DNA of 64,000 bases from Mycteria americana (lineage: Eukaryota; Chordata; Aves; Ciconiiformes; Ciconiidae), in NCBI RefSeq assembly GCF_035582795.1, contig NC_134373.1, positions 25,824,501-25,888,500 of the forward strand, in the 5' to 3' direction. The stretch's first letter is position 1, and each line of letters starts with the position of its first letter. This document shows, one piece after another, positions 1 to 64,000 of this stretch. The notes under the pieces are model-generated. The model did not search any database. It had not been told where the DNA came from and saw only the letters and a program-made list of their open reading frames with translations. Both the position numbers and the translations under genes were made by a program.

Positions 1-69
1 GCACAGCATCACACAGACACAGCCAGTGTCCCAGCGTGCAAAGAGCAGACCAGAAAGCAGGCCCATTAC

Positions 70-291
70 CTAGGAGTCCCCCGAAGGTGATGGCAGGAGA
101 GAGAGCAGCAAAGTAGATGAAGAGAACGGCTGCGAGACACTGGCTGTGCAAGGCGTCTCTGATGTCACTGAGGTATTTGGGGTACCTGCGCTTTATGTCC
201 CGAACCAGACCTCCAAAAAATATCCCGGTCCGCTTCAAAGGGTCGTCCTCAGCTTCCTCCTCTTCTTCCTCAGCTTTCACTTCACACAGCT
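70..291 (-). CDS. SLC4A3: SLC4A3 exon with first membrane helix (last in window)
   Basis: After acceptor acctccag this exon reads [20 protein letters not shown], then [20 protein letters not shown] and the first transmembrane helix around [19 protein letters not shown]. It ends in phase 1 at CTAG/gtaatg. The following exons encoding helices 2-14 lie left of position 1. Confidence 0.95.
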
Positions 292-3200
292 CTGGAGGTG
301 CACAGAGGGGAGGGCTTGAGCAGGGGAATGCAGGTCGTACCCTTGGGCTGTCCCTCTCCCCCATGCCCCGTGGAGACCCTCCTCCAGCAGCACTAACCTG
401 GTGGGCCCCCTGAGGCTGCGCACCCCACTGCCTCCAGCTGCCCCCAACTGCCAGAGCTGCCCACAGCCACTGTCCTGCCTCCCCTTGCCCCCCTCCCCGC
501 TGCCCACTGCAGGAGCCAGGCCCCGCTCACCCCTCTGCCAGGCTCTGTGAGGGGAGGGCCCACTGGGGCACGCAGGGCACTAGGCACAAACTCTTTTGCC
601 CAAATGTGAGTGGAGAGACCTTTGGCTTCCTGGACAGCCCCCTCCTTCATGGACTTCTGCTCCCTCTCCTTCCTCTTCCTCAGCAGCAACTTCTGGAAGG
701 TGGCAATGGATTTGAGCAAGTCTTTCCCCTCCACCTCCGATGGGGGGATGACAATGCTGCAGTCCAAGAACTCGTTGATTGCATTGAGGAGGTCTTGACG
801 GTCATCTGCCATGTATGCAGCCTCATGGAAGTGCTGAGAGGGGCAGGGAAAAAGAGAGAGGGAGAAGGCTCAGACCAAGACTGCACCCAGCTACCTACAG
901 CCTGGAAACACAACGCTTGCTGTGACCATACAGTAACATCCCGCTCCCTCGACTTGTCTCACTACTGCCACTCTGTGCCAGACACTCCTGAATTGCTCCT
1001 CCCTGTCCTTCTACCCAGTGCCCCTCACCCAATCCCATGTCTCTCCTCCCTTCCCTATCCATCCTTTCCAGTGACCTCCTTGCTCCTGCTTTTCTCCCCC
1101 AAGCCCCACTGCTCTTGCCCAACATCGTGCTCCTGCAGCATCTCTGCCAGCTACACGCTCTGCCAGACCACAGGGACCTCATGAGGTCCCATGAGAGGTC
1201 CCTCTCATGGGACTTCACCATCAACCAAAATCAGATCTGTGCTTCCCCGCTAGCCTGGTGCCTCTCGTTCCCTAGGCTAGATGCTACACCTGGCCAGCCT
1301 GTGCCTCTGTTCACACCAGACCACTGTGGCTGCATCAGGACAAGATCCTTCTCCTTACAAGCTCTGCATGCCATTGCTCGGTCCTGCAGGGCTCTCGTTC
1401 GGAGCCCAGCTCAGGCATGTACCAGAAGCCAGGCACCACAGAGATGAAACACTTTCCCTGTCCCTGCAGCTCAAAATTAGAACTCTGCAACAGACCGATG
1501 TCCTCCTAGTCTGGTCTTGGGTTTGTTTTGAGGGAGAAGCTGGTGGAGTCCTAAAGCACTGCAGGATAAAGCACAAGAACCAGGACCTGAGCACGGAGCA
1601 TAAGAGACTCTTGGGAGTCTCCACATGGGAGAGGGAGGGAAAATAGGAGTCTACAGCATGAGGGAAGCCATGCAAGGGAAACCAGGCAGAAAAGGGGAGA
1701 TACTCCTGACAGCAAGGGCAAGATGACAAGGAAGGACTCCAAGGAGACCATGAGGGGACAGCACTACTGCAGATAGGCAGGGAGGTGCTGGCAAACAGGC
1801 GGAAGTGCTGCATTGCCTCTGGAACGTGCCTGCAGAGAAAGGGCTGGAGAAGATGAACAACTGAAGAGCCTGTAAAGCAGGCAGGGGACAGCTAAGGTCC
1901 CTGCAGCGCACAGACTCCCTGGAGCCACAGCTTCAAACTGTAAATGATACCGTACTCTTCATGGCGCCAGCCACCGTGTAACCTTGCTATGGCCAGCCGG
2001 GCTGCGGCAGCTGGCTCCCCTCTTCCAGCAACAGGGGAGCAGAGGCTCAGATGAGCAAGATCAGCCCACAAATGCAGCACCGAAGCTGGAATATGGCACC
2101 TCACCTCTTCTGGCTAGAAACACAGTCTCAGCTGAGCCCTGTGCAACTCCTGGGAAGGGATCTTACAGCTGGGAGCCCTTGTTGCCCACAGCCCACTTGC
2201 TCTAAGTGGACCTTTTAGTCCCCATTTCAGGGAGAGTTCTGCACTGGTGGCAGGACAGACAGGTTTGTTACTCCGTTATAGTTACATGGCACCAGTCAGG
2301 AGGACCCTGTGAACCTCCGATTCTCCTGTCCTGGATGTATGCAGCAGATGCTCAGATTGTCTTTTCTTTGCCTTTAATTCCTTACCAGAATAATGAATTT
2401 CACTTTCCTGCCATCTAGCCAGATGGGGGACTTCTAGCAGTGCACACGCTTGGCAGAAAAACCTTCCTGCCTCCTCATCTCTCCTCCTGCATGGATGTGC
2501 TCCTCTGCATGGATGCCCCAGCCACGGGACTCAGCTAGAAAGCTTCATCCAAACACCTGACAACAGTCCCCAGGCATTGCTGGGTCTTTTTGTCAGTGTG
2601 GCCTGGGCCAGGCATCATGGTCACTGGCACCGCTCAGCCTCCCCTCCTCTCTGTGAAACATCAACTGAACACAACTCCTCTAACCTTGGGCAGTCCTTTG
2701 CTCCTGCTTTTATGTACGGCCCCTTTCTTCACCCAGCCTAGCACTCTCTGTCCCAGCCAAGTGTCTGGCCTGCTCTTCCCTCCGTACTGGAGCATCCTAC
2801 CTTGGTCGAGCCAGGCTACTCTTAAAAATCCCAGGTGCTGACGCCCGCCTGCCCCGCCCGGGCCTTTGCACAGCATCTCGCAGCACTCTCGTCCCAGGAC
2901 TGACTTCTGAGGAGCTACCAAAGCTCCCTCGCCCATGCCGGCATCACCGCCCATCAGCTCCTCACCTTGTCAGACATGAGGGTGGAGATTGAGCGGCCAA
3001 TTTCATGGTAGTCCATGTTGGCCTGGCTCGGTCCCAGCAGCACAAAGATGAACCTGACAGGAATCGGGACCTCCAAGACAGATTCCAGAAAGACGGCCTC
3101 ATTTAGTCGGACAAAGGCCATAGTTGGCTGCTCCAGGAACTGCACACAACCTACCAGGAGGCAATGTTTTGAGCAGAGTTAATCATTGGGGTGAGCTGTA

Positions 3201-6200
3201 CTGGGCTGCCTTTAACAGTGGAAACAGGGATTTTGGGGGTTCCCACGAGCCCTGCAGTCCTGTACTTGTCTCCAGACCACTGACGCAGCATTGAGCTTCA
3301 TGCCGAGGACTGCTCCAAGTCCCCTGTTCACTGATCATTCCCAAGAAGTGCTACTTTCTTTAGCTTTCCGGTTAGCCCATTCTTAATCTCTTACAGATGG
3401 GTTCTACTTACACTATAAGGGGCTAATTTTAAATCAGAAGGTTGTTTTATGCTAAGCCGCTGCCTTATGGAAGGAAGTCTCTTACATGTTACTTTTATCA
3501 AACTTCTAATTTCATCAAAGAATGAAATCAGGTTTGCTTGACGTGACCTATTTCCCATAAACCTCACTGCTTGGCAATAATTACATTCTTATCCTTTAGC
3601 TCTTTATTAATTGAATCCCATATTAGCTCTGCCATTATTTTGGCCGGGAAGGACGTCAGGTTAACCTGTAGGTACTGGATCACTGTCCTTCCCTTCTTGA
3701 GCACTGATGCTATGAGCTTTCTTCTGTTTTTCTTGTATGTTCCCTGTATTCCTAGACTTTTTTTTTTTCAGATGAAAATGAGCCAGTTCCCTAAAGACTC
3801 ATAGGTGCAAACTGCACAGTTTGTTTTACAATGTCCGCATCTCATCAATGCTTGGCAGCCTCCTCGGTTCCTAACAGATTGGGAAGTGCTCCCGCATCCT
3901 CCAGCACACCAGCCGCTTCCTTCCCATACCGAACACAAATGTTTATTGAATACTTGTATTTCGCTGGCATTATTACTGATCTTTCTGCCATCTGTGTCCA
4001 GCAAAGAGCTGTGTTCTGTGTTAGACTGGCAAATCTGGGCCATCCGAGTGGCCAAGCGAATCCCAAGACACAGCCTTACCTCAGAAATGGCCAGTGTTTA
4101 GTTATCTGAGTATTCAAAGTGTGTTTATGAAGCTGATTTGGCCTCATCATGGTTAAACATCAGCTTGGTTGAGCTGCCAAGCCTCTTTGCCTGAGCTTTT
4201 CATCTACTGGATAGGCAATGACATTTACTTTGCTTGTAGTGTAGCTACGTTTGCTGAGATGTTAATGCCAGCAAAGTGCTGAGAAGGACTGTTCTTGTGG
4301 TTATAAGGCACCAAGCCCACTGATGCTCGAGCCTGCCCGCTCACAGCCCTGTTGCACAGAGAAATATCTTCTGGCAGTGCTATGGCCAATACCCAAGACC
4401 TTGCCACCAGCCAGGCCTTGCTTCCACAAACTCAAAGCTCCCTGGCACACACAGCCAGCAACCAACACTGGCCAGGGCAGGACCCAGCTGCTGGCAAGGT
4501 GTGAAGAGGCCAGACGGAGTGCAGCGATGGTCAGAGGACAGTGCGAGGCCTGACAGCAGTCAGTGCCTGACCATCAGTCCCTTGGGCACCACATACCCAC
4601 TTCTGAGCTGCAAAATGGGATGTTCTGGTGAGCCTGGTGGGACTTTCTCCTCTAAGCTGGGCCCCAGCTCCCAGCAGCAGTGTCTAGCAACCTTTTAGTT
4701 TAGGAAAGGAACTATCCAGGCACCCCTTACATTTACCACAGACAAACAAAACGTGTGTTGTCACCAAAGGAGAGAGCATACAAGGCTCCCTCCCCAGTTG
4801 AACTTCGGGAACATGTACAAGATGACCAAATACCCCTCAGGAGGGAGGGCACACACAGCTGGAGCCAGACCAGGATCTGAACTGCTCTCTTTTGGCACCA
4901 GGGGACTCTACATGCTGCCTCTTACCCACAAGGACCACTGTGGCCTCCGCATCTTCAGGGATCTTCTCCATCAGCTTCAGGTATTTACGGTGGCCCTCAG
5001 AGTTATGGAGATGTGGGTTTTTCTGCTGGGGAAGAATAGAAACAAGTAAGGATGGAGTTCCCATGCCTTGGTCTCCCTACACAGCCTTGCACCCCATTGG
5101 CATATCTGCAGCCAGGCTTGCTTCAGCTGCACGCCCAACACCCTGATTCAGAGGCAAGGCACCCTCACAGCAAACAGCCACCCTGCAAGTGCCAGGGCTG
5201 TTGCTGCCATTGCATGCTCAAGCAGACATTTGCATACAGCGTGAGGCTAAAATTAGGTCCCGAAATCATAACGCAGCGACCTGATTTCCAGTGCTCCAGG
5301 TGATCCAGGGGAGCTCAGCCCTTGCAAGTACAAGACCCCCTATGAAGGAGCCCAGAGGTGGGCGCCAAGGGCTGCTGCCGGCCAACAGTTGTCCCCAGGG
5401 TGTGGAGAAAGAAGCAATAACCCCCATGTCACCCTCACCTCCTTGCACTCGGTCTCATGGGCCTTGGGGTCAGCCATCTCGATGCGCTCTTCCCCCATGA
5501 GGGGCACGCAGGTGTCGGTGGTGTGGTTGTGGTGGTGGTTCCCCACAATAGAGTTCATGCTGGAGCTGGAGTGGTTCCTCGGGAAGAAGCCCTCCTTCTC
5601 ATCATTGGGGTGGCTGAGGGGAAGAGCAGTGGCCATGAGGGGACCCGTCTCCCATGCCGCCTGGGGCTCACAGACAACCCCCAAGCCCCGGCAGCCCTCG
5701 GCCATGTACCACCCACCTGTGCTTCAGCAGCAGGGCACGCAGCACATTGGCTCGGTCCTCCGCTCTGATCTGGTCAGAGATGATCATGGTCTCCACCATG
5801 AGGTGAGCAATGCCAGGCAGCGTGGTCTGCTCCAGGTCAAGGAGGACGGCACCTGCCAGCAGGAGGGGAAGAGCCCTGCTCCTAGTGCGCAGCGCTCCCC
5901 GCCGCACACACACGCTGGGGACACGGTCGTCCCACCAGGAGCCAGGCTTTGGTTGGGGTACAGATTCTCTCAGTTGAGAAATGCCCCAAGCCCAGGTGTC
6001 CCATGTCCTCTGTGTAAACCCTTGTCCCAAGAGAACCCAAAAGCTCCAAGACACACTAGTAGCTCTGGTATCTTTCTCTTGTTTTGGTCACCCACCCTGA
6101 CCAAACTTGACCTTTTACACCAAAGATGGGTCAAAGACCTGCAGGCCCAGGCACAGCTGGGTGTCACAGCTGCCATGCGCCTGAGAGCAGCAAAGCAGAG

Positions 6201-9200
6201 CAAGGAACCAACACAGGTACCCTTGGGCTAATGCAAACCCTGGCAAACAGGCTGCAGGACGGTCTCTCTCTGCAGACTCTACATGGAGCCTGGACACGGA
6301 CACTGTTGGAGTGTCTCCAGTGAGGGGCCAAACAGCAACAGAAGCTGTCCAGCAAAACCTGTCCCAGAGCAAGACACCCTGGCCCACGGTTCCTGACTCA
6401 CCGTGGGCAATTGTCTTCCTGAGCTCCAACAGGCTGCGGAAGGACAGTGAAGCCACGTGGGGTTTCCCCCACCTTGCTGTGTCCTCCTCCACGTCCTCCT
6501 CAAACTTGATCCAGCGGGCTGTCTCCCTCCAGTGCATCTCCTGGTTCTTATCCACCACCAGCTCGTTCAGCTCCACAAACACCTAGTGCAAATTACAGCG
6601 AGGACATGAGACTTCCCCTGATGCATACAGCTCTATCAACGATACACGGAAACCCTCAGGTTTGTTCTCAAGGTACCACTTGGTCTAAAGTACTGCCTGA
6701 GCAAACCTGCCTTAGTTAACCAGAAGTTTGGTGAACAGAAGCAGCCAGGACAAATATCACTGGCAGCATGGCAGGAGCTTCCATCAGCACACGGAGCACT
6801 AGAAAGCTCCAAGTCAGATGGTGTGGGCAGAGGAGAGAGAATGATGCAGTGCTGCACCCCTCTACCAAACTGTGACAATTTTGTCCTCTGCCTGCTTCTT
6901 GGTTTCCCCCAAAATTTCCCACACTCACCAGAGGTGGTGACGTTACTGTGCTGCCAACTTCCATGACAGCACTACCACGTCTGTGACTTTTTAACGTCTT
7001 TCCTAAGGATCAAGCTTTGTGATTTCAAAAAAATCTTCACTTTTATTAAAAAAGTGTATTTTCAGCCCTCATTATAATAGATAAGAGCTCGAAATGTCAC
7101 CCCCAAGGTCATGTAAACTATTAATTATATTGAAACCACATTTATCACTTTATAAAGTGCCTGTTTCCAGTCCTGATTTATGGCTTCTGAACAAGTGTGG
7201 GAGGACAGCACATGGATACCTCATGAGGCTTTCTATCCAACTTCTTCTTCTTCTTCTTTTTCTTGACAGATGGAGTTGATGCTAATTTTTTGCTTGTCCT
7301 GGTGATCTGACTCCGAGATGGTTTTTTCATCAGATGCCTCCTCACACCAGGGTTATCTTCAAAACGGTGGCCTGAAGACATGCAAAAGGAAAAAAGACCA
7401 CCAGTGTGTCTAGTGGAAACACACTGTCTGGCAGGGAAACACATCCAAGCCCACCCTTCTCTCATTAGCTTACGCTAGCAAAGCCCTGGCAGCTGGAGCA
7501 CTCACCATCATCCTCCAGACCTTTGAAGATCCTTCCTGCCTCATCTGCCTACTTTCAGCTCTTCCAGACATCTGACAGCTAATTCCTTCAAGAAGGCGGC
7601 TTCCTCCCAGGCTGTGCATACACTGAAGCATCATTGCAGAAGCTTTTATTCATGGTACCTGAATAAGTGGGGCATGAACCCTTCCCATACTCCCTCAACG
7701 GAAAGCAACCTGAAGCCCTATCTGCACAGCTCTGCACCCAGACAGCACAGGCAGGCACCTGGCTGGGGCTCATTTCTCCCACTGGAGGAAGGCCTGGCGC
7801 TCAGCAAGCACAAAGGGCAGTGAAGGGAAAGGATATTTAGCTGCTGGTCTGGGAGACACATGGAAATATCAATGACTGTTTTATATAATTGTGCAATGAG
7901 ACTGTAGGATAACAGTGCAGACCAGGGCTGGCATGGCGGCTGGGCAGTTAACTCCAGCTACCGCTGTTTCTAGATGATCCGCAGTGCCGCTGTACTGCCC
8001 TCTGAGAGGTCTGCGTTACAGAGTTCGGCTGGCTGAATCAAAGCCTCCTGAAGCCTCCAGAGAGGCTGTTGAGGCTGCATTACAGACCCACCACCAAACT
8101 ACCAGTGCTGTTGGCTAGCCAGCGCCCACCAAAACCTGGCCACAACCACGCCAGCCCCTTTTGCAATGCCAGAGAAACAGCACCTGGGCAACAGCCTGCC
8201 ATGGAGAGTAGTTTCCCTGGACACTATCCAGAGACAGCAAGTGTACCTTCCTCGGCACAGACAGCCCATGAGGATGGGGAAAGTCTCAGAGCCCAGCTCC
8301 AGGATGGGCAGGGTCCTCCAGGTAGATCACGGAGTCAGGGGTTTTGCTCAGCTTCGGTCCATCGAGGCTTGCTGGCCCTGCATGTAAGGCAAAGCCAAGG
8401 TCTTCTCCCTGGGGGACCAAGGGCAGCTCTCCGTTGACTGGGGTGAATGTTCGGTCTCCATGTACCTTTCTGCCCTTGGCTTCAAGACCTGCAGCTCTCA
8501 GGGCAGGAGAGGTAGCGAAAAGCATTGGGCTTGACGGCCAAGCGGTCTCTTTGATATTGCAGGAAAATATCCATGCATCTCTGGCATGGAAAGACATAGC
8601 CCAGCACCAGGTCAGGCATACCATGGCCTTGCTCCTTGGAAATCTGGGTTGCTAAATTAAATATAAAATGAATCAATACGGAGCCTCAGGGCATTTTCCC
8701 CCATTGGCTGCCCTGCTGATGCACGTCCTGCTGACGGCCGGACTCCTCCCTGCTCCACTTACTGCACTGCAATGTCGATAGGAGCCAATAACTGCCAATC
8801 GCTATGAACGTTTCTGGGAGCCAGGCACATGTGGGGCTTCCTCGGTCTTTTGTATGGATTTCGCAATTCCTGCATGTACGGCAGCCACTTCATCACACTT
8901 GGTGTGGATTCGTGCATAAACAAACAGGTCACCAGGCAGATGATCTTGGTATCTGGCACCTTTGCTCCAATCCCTGCAGCTTCTGATGCTCCCATGCACC
9001 CTGGGACTCATTCTCACCATGTCCCTAGAAGAACAGGGCCAGAAGATGCTCTGCCCAAGTCGACAGAGCGCTCACCCAGAGCATGGCAAGCCTCGCCCGT
9101 GGCAATGCCAACCTGTCACGCAGTGCTCTTCAGCAACAGCCCTAGAAAGCACACAGGCATTCAGCCTCAGTCACCGAATGGCTGGAGGACAGATAAAACA

Positions 9201-24854: not shown

Positions 24855-25225
24855 GGATGCACTGCACCATGTACCGTGCCGTGCCATGCCGTGCAACCCG
24901 TACGGTGCGCTGCGCAGGACCGCACCACGCTGCACACCACGCCGCGCAGCATCCAGCACCGGGCACCGCGCCGTGCCCAGGACTGTGCTGCGTGCTGTGC
25001 CGTGCACCATGCCATGCACCATGCCACGCACTATGCCACGCACCATGCCATGCAGCGCCCTGCACCGTGCCGTGCCACGCACCATGCGCTGCCCTGCACC
25101 GTGCCATGCCGTGCGCCATGCACCGTGCCATGCCATGCACCACGCACCGCCCTGCACCGTGCCATGCAGGGTGCAGCACCCCGCGCCGCGCCGCGCCACG
25201 CACCGTGCGGTGACCTGCACCGTGC
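24855..25225. repeat. Pentamer-based minisatellite (GCACC/GTGCC/ATGCC)
   Basis: About 370 bases are built from shuffled five-base words gcacc, gtgcc, atgcc, acgcc and cgcgc, best seen at 25,000-25,160 (for example gccatgcaccatgccacgca). Because the units have few stop codons, long open frames appear in several frames on both strands (for example 24876-26006 and 24614-25027); these are by-products, not genes. It lies just inside the 5' end of SLC4A3. Confidence 0.85.
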
Positions 25226-29100: not shown

Positions 29101-32100
29101 CCTGGTTGGATACATGTGTGCTCTGTAGTCTCCTTTTTAGCTGCTTGAGAATTTCTGGCTCTGGTCAATATTCACATCAGCTAGGTCTGATCGTTCTGTG
29201 TGTCTGGCTGTTTCCACATTCAAAGGCCCGCAGCTGATCGAGGTTTATTTCATTGTACCTCAGCAAACTTAAATTAGAGACGATTGTCAGAGGGAATGCT
29301 GTGCCCCAGTGTCCTATCTGCACTGGTGCCCAGCAGGTTTCTGAGACATGAAGGCAAGCTCCAGCTGCGGAGAACTAAGTAGTGTGGGCTGTGCTAGCAG
29401 TGGAGCTCTGGGCTTCTGTCTGTGGCGCAGAAGCAGCTGCCTGCAGGGGAACAGGGGCTGCTGGTAGGGAGTTGCTTTGAGAGCTTCTTTTGTCTGCCAG
29501 AGCACAAGTTGTTTGGCCAGGGCGTGTGTATCTTACTTCTGCTTTGATGGAGGTCTGAAAAAGGTTTTGTTAGCATGAATCTTTGTGCTTAGTGTTCAGA
29601 GCCTACGAATTGTAACATGTTAGGTTAACTATTGCCACATGAGTGTAGGAAGCAAAAGCATCTCCCCTTCTTTCTAAATATCTAGCCGTGGAATTCCCAC
29701 CACCTCCAAATACTTGAATTAGTGACATAAGTCATCACCACTCTAGGCAAGGCAAGGTCTGTAAAGCACAATATGCCAGCCTTGTTCTAGACTAGATGTT
29801 CTCCTGTGTTCATCTGCTGTTACGGTAACAGCTAGTACTCACCAAGGAATGGCTCCTCACTTCTTCCTAGGAAATCATTTCAGCATGTGGTGGAGATCTG
29901 AGCTGTGCTCTCCCGTGGTTGGAATTGCAGACTGTGAACTTCAGCTATAACTCGATCACTGCCTTGGATGACTCACTGGTGAGTAGGGCATCCTTCCTGC
30001 ATGACGGATGGGAAGAGAGGAGGTGATCAGAGCCAAGAACTGGGCATTCCTTTACTGATGCTGCTAGGTCTGGGTGGGAGGGAGTGGGCAGTGTTAATTT
30101 TTCTGGCCTCTCCCAGCAGGACAGGGTTTCCATGCTGCAATGGAGACGTTTGTAGGATCTGATTTAGTATCTTTTTGTCCTTCAGCAATTACTGAATGCT
30201 CTGAGAGTCTTGGATTTGAGTCACAACAAGATCCAGGATTGTGAGCACTATTTAACGGTGAGTATCTTGGGCTAAGCACCAGTTTCCTCGTATGGAGAGG
30301 ACACTGCTAAAGTGCTGTAATCATTAACCATGTGCCTGCTAGGTGAAGTATAACAAAAGAAATTGGAGACGTGGCCCAGCAGGCATGTGAGTTAGAACTA
30401 GCGCTTGCAGCCTTGAAACTGTTGTCCTGTATGTGCAGCCTGTGTACCACTGAGGCAGAGAAGACAATGTTCCTCATCTGCTCCAAGACAGGAAAGTTAG
30501 CTGTATGTATCACTGTATGTATCACTTGGCACTCCAGTGTGGCCGAGTGATAAATACAGCAATACATAAAGTGTATACTGTATGTACAGTTGCACATGCA
30601 GTGTGCACTCTGTTGTGGCCAAGACTTCGCTGTAATCTGTGCAGCAGGTGGGAATTATGTAGCCAGGCATGGGGCTGTAGAGACTTGCTGTTCAGTTTGT
30701 TCAGACTGCCAGTAGCATTTCCTTCTTGCTCTCAGAAATCTTCTGTCAGTTACTTTAGAAAGGTGGTAGTCCATCACAGTGGCATGTGCATCTCTGGGGA
30801 ATGGCAATGAAATCCTTGTTCTGCTGGGCTAGAGATCTGCTTCTTTTAAGAGAAGCTATGAAACAGCTTTTCATGGAGTTGGTGGGGCTCACAAGGTATC
30901 ATTCACCATCACCTTTGCAAAGGTAAGAAAGGGCTTGTTTTGGTAGTTCAGTCCTTTTGCTGAGGCAGGGGGTCCAGTCCTTTCCTGTGCTCCATTGAAG
31001 TTGATGAGGAAGGAGAAAGCTGCTCCTAGCAGATTTTGTAAAGCAGTTAGATCATGCTGAGCGCCCCTAGACAAACGACTCCAAATGTGAACATCAAAGT
31101 CTTGCTGCAGAAATAGTCTTAAACTCACTTGTTGGTTGACCTTGGTGGGATGGAAAAAATGGTAGGGGCTAGTGCTCTGTCTTGAGTTCAGGGTCAGGCT
31201 TTGAGCTAAGGTCCCAATTGATCTGGTGCTGCTCTTCTCTCTGAACAGGCCCTTACAGAACTAGAGTACCTCAATCTGGCTTATAACTTCCTGTCCAAGG
31301 TGCCAAACCTTGGCATCTTCAGCCGATCAAAGCTGGTGACTCTGATCCTGCGCAACAATGAGCTTGACAGCATTAATGGTGAGCCCGCAAGGGAGGAGCA
31401 TTTCTGACTTTGAGGCCTTTCTCTCTTCCTCGAGGAGGAACAGAACTTGAAATCTTGGGCACAGCTATTGTTACCAGGGTTCAATTTTGTGGGAGAGCGG
31501 TAGGTGGGAGGTCCCTAAGTTATATCTTCTAGTGTGCTGATGGCTTCTTGCTTTGTTTGCAGGGGTTGAACAGCTAGTGAGTCTGCAGCACCTGGATGTG
31601 GCCTATAACCTGCTGCTGGAACATGCCCAGTTGGCACCATTGTCCACTCTGCACTATGTAAAAAAAGTAAGCACAAAGCCTGATGGGTTGGTAGATTAGA
31701 GATGTCATGGTCACGGGGTGCAAGGTGGAGACTGTGTGGTAAGAAGAGAGTTTTGAAAGATCAGTTCAACTCTTGAGCATTTAATTTTAATGCAGGAAGC
31801 TGATGGGGGAGCCTTGGAGAGACACCTGTATTTCAGCCTTCATTTTCGGTGACCCCTGCTCAAGCTAACCTTTTTCTATATATTCATCCCCATCTCCTTG
31901 CTCCCCTTTTCCGATTTTAACACTGTCAAGTTCAGTAAAGATCCTCCCCTAATCCTGTTGTGGATTTGTGTGTTCAGAGAAGTCTGAAGGAAGATAACTG
32001 CAGTCACTATAGTGCTTGTGAAGGAAGATAGCCTGCAAAGGACTGTTCTCTCAACACTTCTCAGAGTCAATACTGAAAAAGCTCCTAATGATTTAGGGGC

Positions 32101-51419: not shown

Positions 51420-52080
51420 GTCTCACGGCCGGAGCGCTGGCTCCCTCCTCTCCCCCGTGGCCAGGCTCCCCGGTGCTCCTTCGGAAGGCGCTGCTCATCC
51501 CTGCACACGCCGCGGGCTGAGCCACGGCCCCCGAGGCTGCTGCTGCTCCAAGGCTTCGGCGCGTTTCCGCGCAGCGGGCAGGGCCCCAGCTTCGCACCTC
51601 GGCGGGGGCGGCATCCCCGGAGCCAACGAGCTCCCGGGGGGCGGAGGGCGGAGGGGCAGAGCCGGCCCACGGGGGGGGCTGGATGGGGCTGCCGCGGCCG
51701 GGAGCAGCCTTCGGGCCACGGGTGGGTTTCGGCGGCTGCCTGGAAAGCCGGCTTTGCCGCGGCTGATGTCGCCGACACACGCGATGCCCCGCGCGAGTTT
51801 CGGCCGGGGCCGGCCCCTGCCCGCAGCCCTGCGCGGCCCCCCGAGCCGCGGGCGGGGAGGGGGCCGGGGCCCGGGGGCGGCAGCGGCCTGCCCGGCGGCT
51901 GAGTCACCCGGCGGGCCGGGCCGGGCCGGGCCGGGGCGGAGCGGGACGCTCGGTGCGCACCGGCGGGCGGGCGCGGGGCGGGGCGGCCCCGGGCCCCTTT
52001 GTTCGGCGGGAGGCGGCGGCGCGCCGCCCCGCCGCTTTGTCCGCCGCCGCCGGCGGGAGCCGCTCGTCCCGGCGCGCCGT
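51420..52080 (+). promoter_or_regulatory. CpG island and probable non-coding first exon of the connexin
   Basis: Very high G+C and CpG, with a short GGGCC pentamer run at about 51913-51936 and an AP-1-like TGAGTCA at 51900-51906. A good plus-strand donor, GCC/gtgagt, with the exon ending at 52079 fits a 5' UTR exon. Connexin genes usually have one non-coding exon and their coding sequence in exon 2. The matching acceptor is at 54528. The start site is inferred. Confidence 0.6.
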
Positions 52081-52680
52081 GAGTGGGGCCGGGGAGCGGG
52101 GGGCTGCGGGAGGGCGGGGGTCGGTGGGGCTGGGGCAGCAGGTGGGGCAGGCGTCGGTACCGCGGGAGGGCTGGGGCGGGGGGGCGGGAGCCCCGGGCGT
52201 GGGCGGGGGGCTGCGGTCAGGGAGGCTGGGGCCGCAGGCGGGGGGGATCGGGGGGGGGCGGGCTGAGGATCTGGGGCAGGCTGGGGTCAGCAGGGCTGGA
52301 GGTCCCCGGTGGGCTGGCGTCGGTGGGGCGGGGGACCCCGGGAAGGCCGGGGCTGGGGGGCTGGGTCCCTAGGCTGGCAGCGGTCAGCGGGTCCCAGCGT
52401 GGGCTGGCAGCGGTCAGCGGGTCCCCGCGTGGGCTGGCCAGGGTCAGTGGGACAGGGGTCTCTGGGCAGGCAGGGGCTGGCGAGCCCCGGGGTGGGCTGC
52501 CCGGTGCTGGGGCAGAGGGGGCCCCGATCTGATGTGGGCTGGGGAGATGGGGTCCCTGGGCAGGGCAGGCTGGGGCAGACGGGCCTGGGGGCCCAGGCCG
52601 GGGGACCTGGGGTCGGTAGGGCTGGGGGTGTACGTGTAGGGCCTGGCCAAGGCACGTGGTGCTGGTCCTGACTCACGGCG
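52080..52680 (+). repeat. G-rich degenerate minisatellite
   Basis: Directly after the connexin exon 1 donor, the plus strand is a run of GGGCTGGGG-type words. Two adjacent near-identical 30-base units start at 52372 and 52402 (ggctggcagcggtcagcggg core), followed by degraded relatives. Four-G runs are frequent, so G-quadruplex formation on the non-template strand is plausible. Long open frames across it on both strands are by-products. Confidence 0.75.
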
Positions 52681-54528: not shown

Positions 54529-54553
54529 GGTTTGAGCCAACTGCCTGGCCAGG

Positions 54554-55876
54554 ATGAGCTGGAGTTTCCTGACACGGCTCCTGGAGGAGATCAACAACCA
54601 CTCTACCTTTGTGGGCAAGATCTGGCTGACCGTCCTCATCGTCTTCCGCATCGTGCTGACAGCCGTGGGGGGCGAGTCCATCTACTACGACGAGCAGAGC
54701 AAGTTTGTCTGCAACACGCAGCAGCCGGGCTGCGAGAACGTCTGCTATGACGCCTTTGCCCCGCTCTCCCATGTCCGCTTCTGGATCTTCCAGATCATCA
54801 TGGTGGCCACGCCATCGGTGCTCTACCTGGGCTTTGCCATGCACCGCATCGCCCGCATGCCCGAGTCCTCGCGGCGCCGGGCACCGGCAGCCCGGCGGGC
54901 ACGCATGCCAGTGGTGCGCCGGGGAGCCGGGCGGGACTACGAGGAGGCGGAGGACGATAACGAAGAAGACCCCATGATCTTTGAGGAGATCGAGGTGGAG
55001 AAGGAGAAGAGCCCGGAGGGTGGAGAGAAGCATGACGGCCGGCGCCGCATCAAGCAGGATGGGCTGATGCGCGCCTATGTCCTGCACTTGCTCTGCCGCT
55101 CGCTGCTGGAGACAGCTTTCCTCTTCGGGCAGTACCTGCTGTACCGCTTCGAGGTGAGCCCCTCCTACGTCTGCAGCCGCAGCCCCTGCCCGCACACCGT
55201 CGACTGCTTTGTCTCCCGCCCCACCGAGAAGACCATCTTCCTCCTCATCATGTATGCCGTCAGCGGGCTCTGCCTCCTCCTCAACCTCTGCGAGCTCGTG
55301 CACCTCGGCGTGGGGCGCATCCGGGACGCCCTGAGCCAGCCCGAGGGCCCCCCACTCCCAGCCAGCGGCAGCCCTGCGCCGCAGTACCCCAAGAAAGCCC
55401 CCGGCGCACCCCCCACCTACCACTCGCTGAAGAAGGAGCCGCCGCGAGCCCCGCTGCCCGACAGCAAGCTGGACTACCGGGAGAGCCTGGCCCAGGTGGC
55501 GGCGGTGGGGCACTTCGCCCTGGCCGGGGCTCCCCCGGCACACGAGCTGGACCGGCTCCGCGAGCACCTGCGCCTGGCCCAGGAGCACCTGGAGGTGGCC
55601 TTCCACCTCCAGCCCCCCCCGCGGCCCCCCAGCCCTGCCCGCAGCAGCAGCCCCGAAGCCAACGGCATCGCCGCCGAGCAGAACCGTCTCAACCTCGCCC
55701 ACGAGAAGGGGACCGCCGCCTGCGAGAGGACCACAGGTGAGCTGGGGAGGGGGACGGATCCGGCTGACGGGGGTGGGGATATGGGGGGCTGCCCCCGGGC
55801 TCCCCCGGGGAGGGGACGCCGCTCCCCCCGGGGCGGGCGGGCGCTAACCTGCCTCTTGCTCCCCGCAGGGCTGTGA
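54554..55876 (+). CDS. Gamma-family connexin (GJC1/Cx45-like), gap-junction channel subunit
   Basis: Four-helix connexin that forms intercellular channels. The start is 25 bases after acceptor ccccgcag. The N-terminus [20 protein letters not shown] and first helix [14 protein letters not shown] are almost those of human Cx45 and Cx47. Extracellular loop 1 has Cys 53, 60 and 64 (C-x6-C-x3-C) and loop 2 has Cys 207, 212 and 218 (C-x4-C-x5-C). The cytoplasmic loop has EEDNEEDP-like DDNEEDPM and [14 protein letters not shown]. The C-tail retains a Cx45-like helix ([20 protein letters not shown]) but is proline-rich and otherwise diverged. Splicing a 132-base intron (55737-55868, GT-AG) gives 396 residues ending ERTTGL; leaving it in gives 440 residues with the same stop. 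Its place beside SLC4A3 suggests a genome-duplication sister of GJC1, which lies near SLC4A1 in human, and it may be the same lineage as fish Cx43.4. Family certain; orthology inferred. Confidence 0.93.
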
Positions 55877-56870
55877 GTGCCACCAGGGACGACGCGGTGT
55901 CTGCCGGAACAGCTGCTGCCGCCACCGCGGGACGGGCAGCCTGCCAGGAGCACCAGGCGGAGGGTGACGCGTGCCTGTCCGGCGGGGCTGGCCGGGCAGC
56001 CCTGTCCCGGTGGGCAGCAGTGGGGACGGGGGCCTTGGGGGACGTTCCTACTTAATTTTCAAAACCGGAATATCTTATTTTTGTACGTTTTTATAAACTC
56101 GTCAGCGTGTGGCACCCTGGCATTTTTATACTCCGCTCCCAAGCTCTGCTCTGGGCCTGCGCCCCCCCCGTCTCCCGTTTCACCCCCTTTTCCTCCTCCC
56201 ACACCCATTTCCCGCAGCATTTTCTCCTCACACCTCCTCATGCCCTCCCGTGCCCGCGGCCACCCGCCGCTGCGCTGGCCAGTGCTGTGCATGTGCGGGC
56301 CATGCTGGCGATGCTGGTATTGCCCCCGCGGTGTGGGGGTTTAGGGGAGCTGAGCCTGGGGGTCCGGCTGGCTGGGCCAAACCATGGGGCAGGGCGCTGG
56401 GCTGGCATTGCACTTGAAGCGGAGGGGAGGGAAGGGGTCCTGGCGGTGCCGCCACTGGAAAGTGCCGGTGTGGCCAGGGGGGCCGTGCTGCGTGGCGTCC
56501 TGGCGCAGGGGCGTGAGCCACGGGGCTGGCCTGCTTGGAAATGTCTGTGCAGAGGGCAGGGGCTGTGCTTCCTGCCACCTCTGCCTTGCTGCCGGCCGGC
56601 CACCCTTGGACCAAAGCCATCCCCTCCCGCTCTGGCTGTGGGGCTGGGACCCCCTGCGCGGGGCCAGACCCTGGAACCACAGTGGGGGGACACGGTGCCC
56701 CGAGCTGGGCTCGGCCGGGAGCCAGCGGGGCATTTCTCATCATCTCAGCCTGGGTCACACAGGGATTTTTGTAGCGTTGTTTTTTACTCGGAAATGATTG
56801 TCACTCTGTTTTTTCTTTTTTTTTTTTTTTTTTTTTAATATCTATATTAGTAAAGGCTGGAGACATTTTG
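55877..56870 (+). terminator. Connexin 3' UTR with possible variant poly(A) signal
   Basis: About 1 kb of GC-rich sequence without a convincing gene, ending in an oligo-T tract (56806-56836) and then AGTAAA at 56849-56854, a known weak variant of the poly(A) signal, followed by a GT-containing stretch. No AATAAA is present. The neighbouring INHA gene ends in the opposite direction about 570 bases further right. Confidence 0.45.
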
Positions 56871-57434
56871 TACTGAACTGCTGCATCCGGTCCTTCAGGA
56901 GGAAGGGGTGGGAAGGGAATCCTGCACAGCTGGGCTGGGGCGGGCAGCGCCGTCCGCCCTGGGACCTCCCCACTCGCCCTGGGTGACTCAGTCATTCCTG
57001 CTCGCCGTGCAGAGGCGGCTGCGGCCGGGGCAGCCTCCATCGGCCTGGCGGAGCAGGATTGCTCCGGCCGTGTTCCTGTGTGGTCCCGTCCCTGGCGAGG
57101 GGCTTCCCCGCGCCTCCCCATCCCACTGCCGCCCCTGGGCCTCCCCGTCCCGCTGCAGCCGGGAGCAGAAGAGATGCTGCCCTGCCCTGTGCTGCCCTGC
57201 CCTGGGGCCAGATCAAACCCAGCCACACCGTGCCGATTTTGGCCAGCACACCCCAGTCCCATCTCTGGGACCCCAGGTCGGAGCTGATGCCTCTTGCGGC
57301 GCTTGCCCGTCCCCTCCCTCCCCCAGCCAAAAGCCCCTGGGGAGCTCACGTCCCGCTGTACAACTGCACGCCGCCTCTGTGGCTGCCTCTGATGGAAGCT
57401 GGTGTTTCCAGGCTGTTCTGGTAAAGGGAACAGG

Positions 57435-57994
57435 TTTATTTCACTCATCCCGTTAAGCTTTCCAAGAGGCTGCCGCCGGGAGAGGGCTCGCTTGCAGCAC
57501 CACGCGTGCTGCCAGCCTCGCCACCAGTGCGAGGTCCTGGCATGGGCTCACCCTGGCACGTCCCGATCCCTGCCCCGGCAGCCTGGCCCTGCCTGGGAGC
57601 ACGGGGAGGCTGTTGCACTCTGCAGCAGGAGCAGGACCCCAGTCTTTTGGGGGGGGGGGGGTTGGAGGAGGGGAGCAGGTGGGGAAAAACGGGGGCTGAG
57701 CTGCTTGCAGACAGCAGTCTGGCTTCAGCAGGGGTTGGGTGCCTCTGCCAGAGGCTGTGCCTGTCCCTGCCCCGCCATGCCCCTGCTTGCTCTGGGCTGG
57801 GACCGGCCCAGGGCCAGGTCTGGCAGCATGACTGTACCTGGGGCAGCCTGAAACTACGGCTTGTGCAGGGGAGGGTGGCACAGCCCAAACCCCCCGCTGG
57901 GTCCCTCTGGTCCCTGCAGGTGGGGCCAGGGGTCCCCTGGGCGAGCGACTCCTCCTGGAGGGGATCACGGGCCGGGGCCGGGCTGCGGGATGCC
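57435..57994 (-). terminator. INHA: INHA 3' UTR and poly(A) signal
   Basis: On the minus strand the INHA stop at 57995 is followed by about 550 bases leading to AATAAA at 57440-57435. A run of about 12 G lies at 57645-57662. Long open frames across this stretch on the plus strand are shadows of INHA and GC richness. Confidence 0.75.
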
Positions 57995-59664
57995 CTAGAC
58001 GCAGGTGCAGTCCTGGGCCAGGATGTTGGGCACTGTCTCGTACTTGAAGGAGTACCCGCCATCGGAGGTGGTGCGGACACGCAGGGAGCGCATGGTGCCG
58101 GGCAGGGCAGCGCAGCAGAGCTGCACGCCCAGGCGATGGCTCAGCCCGTGGCCCTCGGCACAGCTCCCGTGGCAGTAGTGGAAAACGAAGCTGCTGGGAT
58201 GCACGATCCACTTGTCCCAGCCCAGCTCCTCGAAGGAGATGTTGAGGGAAGCCCGGCGGCAGTTGGTGTGGGCGGCCAGGTCCTCGGACGGGCGCTGCAG
58301 CAGGCTCAGGGCAGCCGGGGACCAGGGCATGGCGGAGCGGCGAGCCCTCTCGCCGCCCTTGGCCCGCGTGGTGGTCACCAAGAAGGGCATCTTGTCCCCC
58401 TCGGCGAGGCAGGGGCAGCCGGGGCAGCGCACCAGGAGCACGAAGAGCGGCTGCGAGAGCTGGGGCAGGAGCGCTGGGGCAAAGTGAAACACCGTCCAGT
58501 GCTCGGGCGTCCGCACCGCCGTGGCCGTCACTGGCACGCGGCCCTGCAGCGACAGGGTCAGCACGTCAGGGGCCGAGTGGTTGGGGGCAGCCGAGGGGCC
58601 AGTGTAAAACCAGAGCTGAGCGGAGGTCACCGTGCGGCTCAGGGTATGTGCCGAGGGCTGGAAGAGGTAGGTGAAAATCCCTTCTTCCTCCAGCAGCTTG
58701 TCCGGCTGCGTGGGCTCGCAGGGCACGTCTGCGGGGGGAGAAGGATGCTCAGGGTGCATGCCCAAACCCGGGGAGGGTCCCCAGTGCGAAGTGGGAGGTG
58801 GGGTGTTGCAGGGGGTCCCCAGGTGCTGGCAGGGCTGCACCAGCGTGGGCTGCATCAGGGTGTGGGGGAGCTGATGCCCAGTGCTATGCGGCAGCCACTG
58901 CACTGCGCCCCGCAGCTGAGCCCTGCTGTGCCCCAGGCTGGTCCATTACTGCTGCCCCCATCTGCCAGTGTTCTGCCCCACAGCTGGTCATCCTGCCCCA
59001 TCCTACAGCATCCTGCCCTCTCCCTTAGTATCCCATCCCATTTCCCAGCATCCTGCCCCATTCCCTAGCATCCCATCCTATCCCACCCCGCCCCTCCTCA
59101 GCCCTCCTCATCTCTCCGCATCCCACCTGGCCCACCGTTCCCCAGCCTCTCGGCACCCTCCTGTGCTGCCTGCCCCTCTCCCTGCCTGTGTCCTGGGCTG
59201 CTCTGCCTGTCCCTGCCTGCCTTCCCTTTCCACCTCCTGGCTCGCCACAACACCTCGCCCGTGCCCATGCCCCAGCCTGGCGTACCCTCTTGCCCTTCTC
59301 CTGCAGACCCCCACAGCAGCCCCTTCATCCTGCTGCGTCCTCACTGCCCAAGCCCCCACCCTGCTTCACCCCTCCGCCCTCTCCATCCCACCAGATGGTT
59401 CTCACCTGTGGAAGGGAAGAGGATCACCTGGGAGGTGTCCTCCAGCTCCTCGGGCTCGACTTCGGCGTTTTCAAGGATGTCTCTCCGGTGCACCCTCCTC
59501 GCTTCCTTCTGGGGCTCCTCCTGGAGAAGCGGGGGGCTCAGATGCTCCAGCACCCGAGCCCGCACCTTGGCCAGGATGAGCTGCCGATCGGCACCAGCCC
59601 CGGTGCAGCCGGCCAGGGCGGCGGTGGGCAGCATGGCAGGCAGCAGGTGCAGGAGCAGCAGCAT
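57995..59664 (-). CDS. INHA: INHA, inhibin alpha subunit, complete
   Basis: Secreted TGF-beta-family subunit that pairs with inhibin beta chains; the dimer suppresses pituitary FSH. Two exons, 59406-59664 (259 bases) and 57995-58728 (734 bases), join in phase 1 with normal GT-AG, giving 330 residues. Exon 1 encodes a signal peptide ([18 protein letters not shown]) and a basic site ARRVHRR matching the human pro/alpha-N cleavage site. Exon 2 carries [10 protein letters not shown], the furin-type site RARR (214-217) and a mature domain of about 113 residues with [35 protein letters not shown] and a C-terminal CTCV, keeping the seven-cysteine pattern. The mature domain is shorter than human (about 134) because the proline-rich loop between CHGSC and LCC is only a few residues. 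An in-frame upstream Met at 59772 would precede the signal peptide and is considered 5' UTR. Confidence 0.96.
58729..59405 (-). other. INHA: INHA single intron
   Basis: 677-base intron in the position conserved in vertebrate INHA (between ILFPST and the conserved acidic residue). Its centre is a degenerate run of gcatcc(c)(t)gccc-type words at 58970-59080, probably simple-sequence in origin. Confidence 0.85.
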
Positions 59665-62465: not shown

Positions 62466-63501
62466 ATGGAGGGGTTCGGGGGAGCCCCCAGGTTCCTGGC
62501 CTATCCACGTGCCTTCACCGTGCAAAGTGGTGCCGACGCGGTCCTCAGCTGCCAGATCACGGGCGACCCCCGGCCAAGCATCCTCTGGGAGAAAGACAAG
62601 ACCCCGATCGAGCCCGCAGGCCGCTTCCACGTGGAGGCCAAGGGGGACCTGTACAGCCTGCTGGTGTCCCGCACCACCCCCCAGGACAGCGGGCTCTACG
62701 TCTGCAAGGCCAAGAACAGCGTTGGCGAGACCTATGCTGCCGCCACGCTCAAGGTGGAGGCGGGGGAGCCCGAGGAAGACGGATATTCGGGTGGCGAGGC
62801 GCCCGCCTTCCTTGTTGCCCCCTCGTCCACGCGGGTGTGCCGGGGGGAGGACGTGATGTTCGCCTGCAGGGTGTCCGGGCAGCCCTGCCCGGTGCTGGAG
62901 TGGGAGAAGGACGGGCGCAAGCTCTCCGACCTCTTTGAGAGCAGCCACTTCGCAGTGGGGCAGGAGCCGGAGGACTGGCACTTCCTGAAGCTGTTCGGTG
63001 CCCGGCCCCCGGACGGGGGGGTGTACGTGTGCCGGGCACGCAGCGGCTCCCGGGAGGCCCTGGCTGCTGCCGTGCTCCTGGTCGAACCCCGGGCGCTGCC
63101 AGACGGGCTCCCCAGTGGCTCTCCTGCTGACGGCCCCAAGCCGCTGGCGGAGCAGCAGCGGCGGCGGCGGCATGCGGCAGGACGGCATGCGGCACTGGAG
63201 ACCCGGGTGCCCGATGGCGCGGTGCCAGCCGGGGCGCCGGGGGCCAAGGCATTCGCCGTGAGCGCGGGGAAGCACGCCAAGTTTCGCTGCTATGTCACCG
63301 GCAAGCCCAAGCCAGAGATCATCTGGCAGAAGGATGGCGAGCCCCTCACCCCTGGCCGCAGGCACCTCATCTACGAGGACCGGGAGGGCTACTTCATCCT
63401 CAAGGTGCTGTACTGCAAACCCCAGGACCAGGGGCTGTATGTCTGCACCGCGTCCAACACCGCCGGCCAGACCCTCAGCGCGGTTCAGCTCCATGTGAAA
63501 G
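62466..63501 (+). CDS. OBSL1: OBSL1 (obscurin-like 1), first coding exon
   Basis: Cytoskeletal adaptor that binds titin and myomesin in muscle and the CUL7-CCDC8 complex elsewhere. The exon encodes 345 residues plus one base, then donor AAAG/gtagga; the rest of the gene is beyond the right edge. It holds three immunoglobulin domains, each with the Cys...Trp...DxGxYxC pattern: about 8-96 (CQITGDPRPSILWEK to SGLYVCKAKNSVGE), 112-205 (CRVSGQPCPVLEWEKDG to GGVYVCRARSG) and 260-343 (FRCYVTGKPKPEIIWQKDG to QGLYVCTASNTAGQTLSA, then VQLHVK). Human OBSL1 exon 1 has the same three domains and the same GKHAKFRCYV and GQTLSAVQLHVK text. The frame remains open from the start codon through the intron to the window end, so the exon end depends on homology and the donor. 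A long antisense open frame (63881-61524) is a composition artefact. Confidence 0.95.
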
Positions 63502-64000
63502 GTAGGAGGGTGGCCAAGTGCGGCCGGGGCGGCCGGGTGCTGGGGGGGTCCAGGGCTTTTTGTCTGGCAGGGCTGCGTCTGTGTGTGAGCCCAGCATCCC
63601 TGGTCTTCCTCCTGCCCCGTGCAGCTGGGGTCACCCCCGGCTCCTCTGGACAGAGCTGCGGGCTGGATGCAGGGGATGCTGGGCTCTCCCCGGGAGCTGT
63701 GCCCCCATCTGTGCCCCTCTCTCCTTGCAAGCAGAGAGGTGGTGTCTCTGGAGGTCTGTGGGTGTCCAGCCATGAGTGGGGACAGTGCCTTGGTGACAAA
63801 TTCCCTTGGAAGTGCAGAGTGGTTTTGGCAGGCAGCCCTGCAGGGCATGGCTCCAAGCATCTGCACTGGCGGCAGCCCCATCCCCCAGTGCCACCCTGCC
63901 AGCTGGGGACAGCCCGCCGCTGGGGTGACCCGGCACCTGGCGCATCCCCCGCCTGCACCCCACTGCTCCCCTCTGCTGAGACGCCTGCCGCGGCATGCTG
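63502..64000 (+). other. OBSL1: OBSL1 intron 1, 5' part
   Basis: GC-rich intron start that is open in the OBSL1 frame to the right edge but shows no Ig-domain pattern. Nothing else is recognised. Confidence 0.7.

What the first reader, a model, noticed from the sequence alone, without database searches (positions are those of the whole stretch)
54554..55876. Cx45-like connexin beside INHA and SLC4A3, absent from the human block: likely lost ohnolog of GJC1
The N-terminus, helices and six loop cysteines place it in the gamma connexins. Human 2q35 has no connexin between INHA and STK11IP. In human, GJC1 lies near SLC4A1 on 17q21, within the HOXB paralogon, while SLC4A3 belongs to the HOXD paralogon. 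A gamma connexin next to SLC4A3 is what a two-round genome duplication predicts, so this may be the HOXD-side sister, retained here and lost in placental mammals, possibly the lineage of fish Cx43.4. Its partner tissues are unknown.
Basis: partly seen in the sequence, partly recalled or inferred. Interest (0 to 1): 0.75.

Follow-up and report, generated by a model that had tools for sequence, protein, structure and literature searches.

The report
Third gamma connexin, fish Cx43.4 type
This is an intact gap-junction gene of the Cx45 family, very probably the bird form of the fish gene Cx43.4 that mammals are reported to lack, and its position shows it to be an old genome-duplication sister of GJC1 and GJC2; the gene group already has a name (gjc4), so this confirms and extends known biology rather than revealing a new kind of gene.

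Summary
An intact connexin lies at 54554-55876 (+): Pfam Connexin 4.7e-98, all six loop cysteines. The ORF reads through a probable 132-base intron; the likely product has 396 residues ending CERTTGL. It lies between STK11IP and INHA; SLC4A3 is further out.

The window's own genome (1.35 Gb, probably a bird) has two other gamma connexins, which I label GJC1 and GJC2, so this is a third paralogue, a copy of neither. The three lie on three of the four HOX contigs, each within 0.5 Mb of a WNT pair. GJC2 is 77 kb from the genome's best OBSL1 paralogue, read as OBSCN; this gene is 6.6 kb from OBSL1.

It groups with zebrafish Cx43.4 (98.6/99), but that sequence was recalled and only spot-checked. 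The group is published as gjc4, without mammals (PMC7066803, PMC7914757). Still open: whether mammals lost gjc4 or keep it as fast-evolving GJC3; the trees cannot tell.

The parts
51501..52500 (.). CpG island, candidate promoter and non-coding exon 1 of the connexin
   Evidence: GC 0.82, CpG observed/expected 0.74-0.89 in the two 500-base steps; role inferred
54529..54553 (+). 5' untranslated part of the coding exon, after a splice acceptor
   Evidence: CCCCTTCCCCGCAG|GG just upstream; inferred
54554..55736 (+). main coding exon of the connexin: four-helix core, both extracellular loops, cytoplasmic loop, most of the tail
   Evidence: Pfam Connexin 4.7e-98; solved connexins; own-genome paralogues
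55737..55868 (+). probable 132-base intron, in frame if retained
   Evidence: splice junctions seen in the sequence; not tested by RNA
55869..55876 (+). last coding bases: end of G, then L and stop
   Evidence: translation of the joined exons
396..6588 (-). neighbour SLC4A3 (AE3), N-terminal exons
   Evidence: Band_3_cyto; exon 396-869 best match AE3/AE3-AE2 chimera, then AE2
31222..31404 (+). LRR exon of neighbour STK11IP (whole gene about 25.9-46.7 kb by recognition)
   Evidence: LRR_4 4.4e-06; gene name by recognition
57998..58945 (-). neighbour INHA, exon with the TGF-beta domain
   Evidence: TGF_beta 4.7e-15; gene name by recognition and place
62466..63554 (+). neighbour OBSL1, first three Ig domains
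   Evidence: three I-set stretches; PDB 5fm5 OBSCURIN-LIKE-1 127.7 bits over 87 residues

Best explanation
The gene is the avian member of the gjc4 (Cx43.4) group of gamma connexins: the HOXD-chromosome ohnologue of GJC1 (HOXB chromosome) and GJC2 (HOXA chromosome), kept between STK11IP and INHA. Its product of about 44.4 kDa should act like other gamma connexins: six subunits form a hemichannel, and hemichannels of neighbouring cells dock through the two cysteine-paired loops into a gap-junction channel that passes ions and small messengers. Its second loop has the PCPHxxDC form of GJC1 and GJC2, so it should dock with that H-type group rather than with PCPN-type connexins (docking rule recalled). 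Unlike GJC1 and GJC2 of the same genome it lacks the terminal SVWI (a ZO-1 ligand, recalled) and ends in TTGL, a possible class I PDZ ligand. Shown: intact frame, family, third gamma paralogue, linkage. Inferred: splicing, channel activity, docking partners, PDZ binding, and the early-embryo and germ-line use suggested by zebrafish.
For: Connexin family: Pfam 4.7e-98. Third gamma: own-genome search gives 30 pieces in 21 connexin genes, the closest at C2 (57%) and C22 (58%), both complete and both ending SVWI. Tree of the 21: the three gammas group, GJC1+GJC2 together at 86.2/94 with the window gene outside. HOX9 gives 4 matches on 4 contigs, C2, C22, C26 and C9; the gammas are on C9, C22 and C2; 4 of 1330 triples of the 21 connexins do as well. 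WNT genes lie 0.49, 0.17 and 0.19 Mb from the three gammas, and near none of the 18 other connexins within 0.5 Mb (compared by eye); WNT trees pair C2 with C22 (99.9/100 twice) and C9 with C26 (87.6/82). The best OBSL1 paralogue of the genome is 77 kb from GJC2. Anion-exchanger-type loci are on the same three contigs. Recalled zebrafish Cx43.4 groups with the window gene (98.6/99); moving it to GJC1 or GJC2 is rejected (p-AU 0.005, 0.014).
Against: The Cx43.4 sequence was recalled after I had seen the window sequence; only seven of its residues were checked (printed primer). Its core is hardly closer to the window gene (70.6%) than to GJC1 (70.2%) or GJC2 (69.3%); over the whole alignment it is 62.3 against 57.8 and 58.4%. 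With recalled taxa added, the branching order of the three gammas is unresolved (p-AU 0.43-0.76) and GJC1+GJC2 is no longer recovered. GJC2 is 34.7 Mb from the HOX genes of its contig, so that link alone is loose. I fetched no letters around GJC1 beyond its 4.1 kb locus. No expression data for this species.
Confidence: 0.92

Rival explanations
1. Mammals did not lose the gene: mammalian GJC3 (Cx31.3/Cx29) is its relocated, fast-evolving orthologue, and the bird gene shows what that myelin connexin once looked like.
For: The two groups complement each other: the teleost table has gjc4 and no GJC3, published gjc4 has no mammals, and this genome shows three gamma connexins only. In the tree with own-genome sequences and the PDB-checked human GJC3, GJC3 falls beside the window gene (55.2/57), and GJC3 with GJC2 is rejected (p-AU 0.011). 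In the unconstrained tree with recalled sequences GJC3 also joins the window gene (82.5/60) on the gjc4 side (88.6/57). Human GJC3 scores 188 bits with the window gene, 180.5 with GJC1, 167 with GJC2. A chicken gene described as 'gap junction gamma-1 protein-like' is labelled GJC3.
Against: Support is weak and GJC3 is a very long branch. GJC3 with GJC1 (p-AU 0.25) or at the base of the gammas (0.51) is not rejected; among five constrained trees with recalled sequences GJC3 with GJC1 is marginally best (0.56 against 0.51). The window gene also scores higher than GJC1 and GJC2 with GJA8 and GJB2, so its scores may only mean slow evolution. Human GJC3 maps to 7q22, not 2q35 (recalled). Marsupial GJC3 candidates were filed as GJC3 without such a remark in the passages seen.
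Confidence: 0.15
2. The gene is not an ohnologue but a later single-gene or segmental copy of GJC1 or GJC2 that landed by INHA.
For: Identities among the three gammas are close to each other (72-74% in the core), so sequence alone does not date the split sharply.
Against: The branches are as long as that between GJC1 and GJC2 and the window gene falls outside that pair; the flanking OBSL1/OBSCN, WNT and anion-exchanger families repeat the same chromosome pattern; a lone copy would not bring those neighbours.
Confidence: 0.04
3. The ORF is a decaying or silent gene in this lineage, kept open by high GC content.
For: Third-position GC is 0.894, which makes stops rare; no RNA was available.
Against: No stop or frameshift; 167 of 226 core residues equal GJC1 and 163 GJC2; all six loop cysteines, splice sites and an upstream CpG island are intact.
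Confidence: 0.03

Closest known systems
gjc4 / Cx43.4 orthogroup (zebrafish gjc4b, gjc4a.1, gjc4a.2)
   Same: Third gamma connexin beside GJC1 and GJC2, reported in fishes and other jawed vertebrates but not in mammals; groups with recalled zebrafish Cx43.4; the typed Cx43.4 tail and the window tail share SSSPE.NG...EQNRLN.A.EK.
   Different: Single copy here, three genes in zebrafish. The bird tissue of use is unknown; the fish genes act in Kupffer's vesicle and are expressed broadly and in oocytes.
GJC1 / Cx45 (L003, C22:6084837)
   Same: Core 73.9% identical, H-type second loop, same N-terminus.
   Different: Other contig (HOXB side), ends SVWI, different loop and tail.
GJC2 / Cx47 (L002, C2:3466889)
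   Same: Core 72.1% identical; tail also carries SSP...EQNR.N.A.EK; next to the obscurin paralogue.
   Different: Other contig (HOXA side), MTN extension, ends SVWI.
GJC3 / Cx31.3, Cx29 (human 6l3t)
   Same: Gamma subfamily; lacks SVWI; best tree position is beside the window gene, weakly.
   Different: 45.5% core identity, short tail, mammalian.

Membership tests
Connexin (gap junction protein) | Connexin domain above the curated cut-off | tested here: met
   PF00029 327.9 bits, cut-off 31.3
Connexin (gap junction protein) | C-x6-C-x3-C and C-x4-C-x5-C in the two loops | tested here: met
   [24 protein letters not shown]
Connexin (gap junction protein) | Forms intercellular channels | not testable with these tools
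   Needs paired-cell recording or dye transfer
Gamma subfamily (GJC) | Groups with GJC1 and GJC2 apart from alpha, beta and delta connexins | tested here: met
   Tree of 21 own-genome connexins; labels of the other connexins are by recognition
gjc4 / Cx43.4 orthogroup | Not GJC1 or GJC2 while both are present in the genome | tested here: met
   L002 and L003
gjc4 / Cx43.4 orthogroup | Groups with fish gjc4 in a tree | tested here: inconclusive
   98.6/99 with a recalled zebrafish sequence of which seven residues were checked; core identity alone does not separate it
gjc4 / Cx43.4 orthogroup | Shared neighbours with fish gjc4 | not testable with these tools
   No vertebrate genome other than the window's own was available; the paper says synteny supports orthology, data not shown
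Ohnologue of GJC1 and GJC2 | One copy per HOX chromosome | tested here: met
   C9, C22, C2; none found on C26
Ohnologue of GJC1 and GJC2 | Neighbouring families duplicated in the same pattern | tested here: met
   WNT, anion exchangers, obscurins
GJC3 | Groups with GJC3 to the exclusion of GJC1 and GJC2 | tested here: inconclusive
   Best but weakly supported; alternatives not rejected

The most novel reading that the evidence does not exclude
gjc4 was never lost in mammals. It left its place between INHA and STK11IP, lost the long cytoplasmic parts and evolved fast into GJC3 (Cx31.3/Cx29), the connexin of myelinating glia that forms hemichannels poorly or not at all in many assays. The bird gene would then be the conserved form of a human gene thought to have no orthologue outside mammals.
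Probability: 0.15. Interest if true: 0.6.

Novelty: already known. Interest (0 to 1): 0.35.

Why it matters
It adds a locus and a mechanism of origin to a named but little-studied gene group: three gamma connexins can be traced to three of the four copies of one ancestral HOX-WNT-obscurin block, with the fourth copy missing. It warns that a bird gene called 'GJC1-like' or 'GJC3' is probably neither. It also makes one question testable: whether mammals lost this connexin, which in zebrafish serves left-right patterning and is strong in oocytes, or turned it into GJC3.

Tried and rejected
Considered and rejected: artefact or chance ORF; a duplicate of GJC1 or GJC2; a hidden SVWI exon downstream (none in three + frames of 55701-57500); relatives in bacterial genome and viral contigs (23 and 4 pattern matches, none a relative). 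Thought of and dropped: a coding intron shared with GJC3. Mouse Cx29 has its whole coding region in one exon (passages), and I had no human gene structure. A model by structure prediction was not run, since sequence matches to solved connexins settle the fold.

Not obtained: a family search of the own genome with PF00029 did not complete, so the count of 21 connexins rests on the protein search, in which the divergent GJE1 did not appear. The published bird total is 22; that GJE1 is the missing one is my guess.

Full report
What is there. The frame at 54554-55876 (+) is open for 440 codons. Pfam's Connexin model covers residues 2-252 at 4.7e-98, and 34 distinct solved connexin sequences match, the best at E 2.4e-74. 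Both cysteine triplets of the extracellular loops are present. A donor (ACAG|GTGAGC, 55736/55737) and an acceptor with a pyrimidine tract (55868/55869) bound 132 bases that happen to be in frame. A splice acceptor lies 25 bases upstream of the ATG, and a CpG island at 51501-52500 is a candidate promoter. None of this was tested by RNA.

Neighbours. SLC4A3 exons are on the minus strand at the left end (best match AE3). An LRR gene that I recognise as STK11IP follows, then the connexin, a TGF-beta gene that I recognise as INHA, and OBSL1 (PDB 5fm5). So the connexin sits between STK11IP and INHA.

Which connexin. The window lies in a 1.35-Gb assembly of 279 contigs; contig sizes and content suggest a bird (inference). 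The protein search of that assembly gave 30 pieces, which belong to 21 connexin genes. Two are further gamma connexins. L002 (C2, 57%) begins MTNMSWSFL and ends TSVWI, as I recall for GJC2; L003 (C22, 58%) reads like Cx45 and ends NSVWI; the names are by recognition. The window gene is a third gamma: in 226 core columns it is 73.9% identical to GJC1 and 72.1% to GJC2, those two are 74.3% identical to each other, and no other of the 18 connexins exceeds 50.9% with it. In that tree GJC1 and GJC2 join at 86.2/94 with the window gene outside. With human GJC3 added the figure is 74.1/75; with recalled human and fish sequences the pair is not recovered and the order is unresolved, p-AU 0.43, 0.76 and 0.46 for the three orders.

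Ohnologue test. The HOX9 model gives exactly four matches, on C2, C26, C22 and C9. The three gamma connexins are on C2, C22 and C9, none was found on C26. Of the 1330 triples of the 21 connexins 4 lie on three different HOX contigs. The distance to the HOX genes is 6.7 Mb on C9, 3.3 Mb on C22 but 34.7 Mb on C2, so this link alone is loose. Closer markers agree. WNT matches (63) include pairs 0.49 Mb from the window gene, 0.17 Mb from GJC1 and 0.19 Mb from GJC2; none of the 18 other connexins is within 0.5 Mb of a WNT match (compared by eye). The C22 gene nearest to GJC1 is WNT3 by its best solved match (381.5 bits against 349 for WNT3a). In a tree of 13 WNT end exons C22 and C2 pair twice (99.9/100 each) and C9 pairs with C26 (87.6/82); the second C9 gene is unplaced. 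The first three Ig domains of OBSL1 have their best other match in the genome at C2:3,544,987 (170 + 112 bits; the next is 77.6 bits in the region I take for titin), 77 kb from GJC2. Three loci with the exon pattern of SLC4A3's cytoplasmic domain lie on C9, C2 and C22 (41 matches in all, the rest of other patterns). OBSCN and OBSL1 are described as first-round ohnologues, and connectin as confined to the HOXD chromosome (passages of PMC12198301); the titin-like matches at C9:17.9-18.1 Mb fit C9 as the HOXD contig. HOX letters A to D for the contigs are my inference. The block duplication therefore carried one gamma connexin per copy, and the C2 and C22 blocks look like sisters, as do C9 and C26. 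That predicts GJC1 with GJC2 and this gene outside: one search agrees, cannot decide.

Cx43.4. Teleost cx43.4/44.2 genes were renamed gjc4 (passages of PMC7066803). The 2021 survey names GJC1, GJC2 and gjc4 as the three gnathostome gamma members, uses lower case for groups without mammals, and counts 22 connexins in birds (abstract, sections and passages of PMC7914757). Its figures and supplements were not seen, so that birds are in gjc4 is my inference from the count and the present genome. Against this: I had seen the window first; core identity does not separate the candidates (70.6, 70.2 and 69.3%); the whole alignment does a little better (62.3 against 57.8 and 58.4%).

How it probably works. 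By family it makes hexameric hemichannels and gap junctions. Its second loop has PCPH, like GJC1, GJC2, GJA1, GJA3, GJA4, GJA5 and GJD3 in this genome, while the PCPN form is found in GJA8, GJA9, GJA10, the six beta genes and the gja2-like gene (labels by recognition); by the docking rule that I recall it should pair within the H group. It lacks the SVWI end of GJC1 and GJC2; no such exon was found downstream. In zebrafish gjc4b loss disturbs Kupffer's vesicle and left-right symmetry, the gene is broadly expressed early (passages of PMC9073686), gjc4a.1 and gjc4b are strong in oocytes (passage of PMC10961373), and indels are reported to disturb sex determination, data not shown (passage of PMC7228771). 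[quoted passage not shown] A bird role in early embryo or germ line is thus a guess by homology. A chicken gene described as gap junction gamma-1 protein-like (labelled GJC3) appears among caecal tonsil transcripts (one passage of PMC9384989); by elimination it could be this gene.

Loss or disguise. Its place is unresolved. Beside the window gene p-AU is 0.67, at the base 0.51, with GJC1 0.25, with GJC2 0.011 (rejected). With recalled sequences: beside gjc4 0.51, with GJC1 0.56, base 0.44, with GJC2 0.08, with GJC1+GJC2 0.018. So the view that mammals turned gjc4 into GJC3 is neither shown nor excluded. Only three papers of the library hold both names; in the passages of them that I saw the two are not equated.

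Print check. Searches for the locus (STK11IP, INHA, connexin: 0 papers), for the paralogon, for GJC2 with OBSCN and OBSL1 (no paper holding GJC2 among the six listed) and for loss in mammals showed no account of the HOX-WNT-obscurin origin of the gamma connexins in the open library; subscription papers were not searchable.

Verdict. Observation confirmed, interpretation supported, group already named. Interest 0.35, mainly for the clean ohnologue pattern and the GJC3 question.

Noticed in passing
window 55737-55868: The probable last intron is 132 bases, in frame and without stops; if retained it adds 44 residues and replaces TTGL by PAGL at the end, which would remove the possible PDZ ligand.
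   Followed up: partly
window 25900-46700 against 1-13000: STK11IP (+) and SLC4A3 (-) run head to head here, whereas in human I recall STK11IP and SLC4A3 in the same direction; an inversion of the STK11IP-connexin block in one lineage could have accompanied loss or removal of the connexin.
   Followed up: no
window 24998-25225: Tandem repeats of 12 and 58 bases (TGCCATGCACCA-like) just upstream of STK11IP.
   Followed up: no
window 52372-52451: A 30-base tandem repeat, 2.7 copies, inside the CpG island upstream of the connexin.
   Followed up: no
L013 (C10:15282500-15288000): Two connexins about 2 kb apart on one strand: a GJB1-like and a gja2-like gene.
   Followed up: no
L004 (C1:202792233-202796423): The GJA3-like gene has PCPHTVDC in the second loop, where I recall PCPN in mammals; this could change its docking partners.
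   Followed up: no
C26 (about 3.0 Mb contig): The fourth HOX contig has a HOX9 and a WNT match but no connexin was found on it; the contig is short, so absence could be incomplete assembly.
   Followed up: partly
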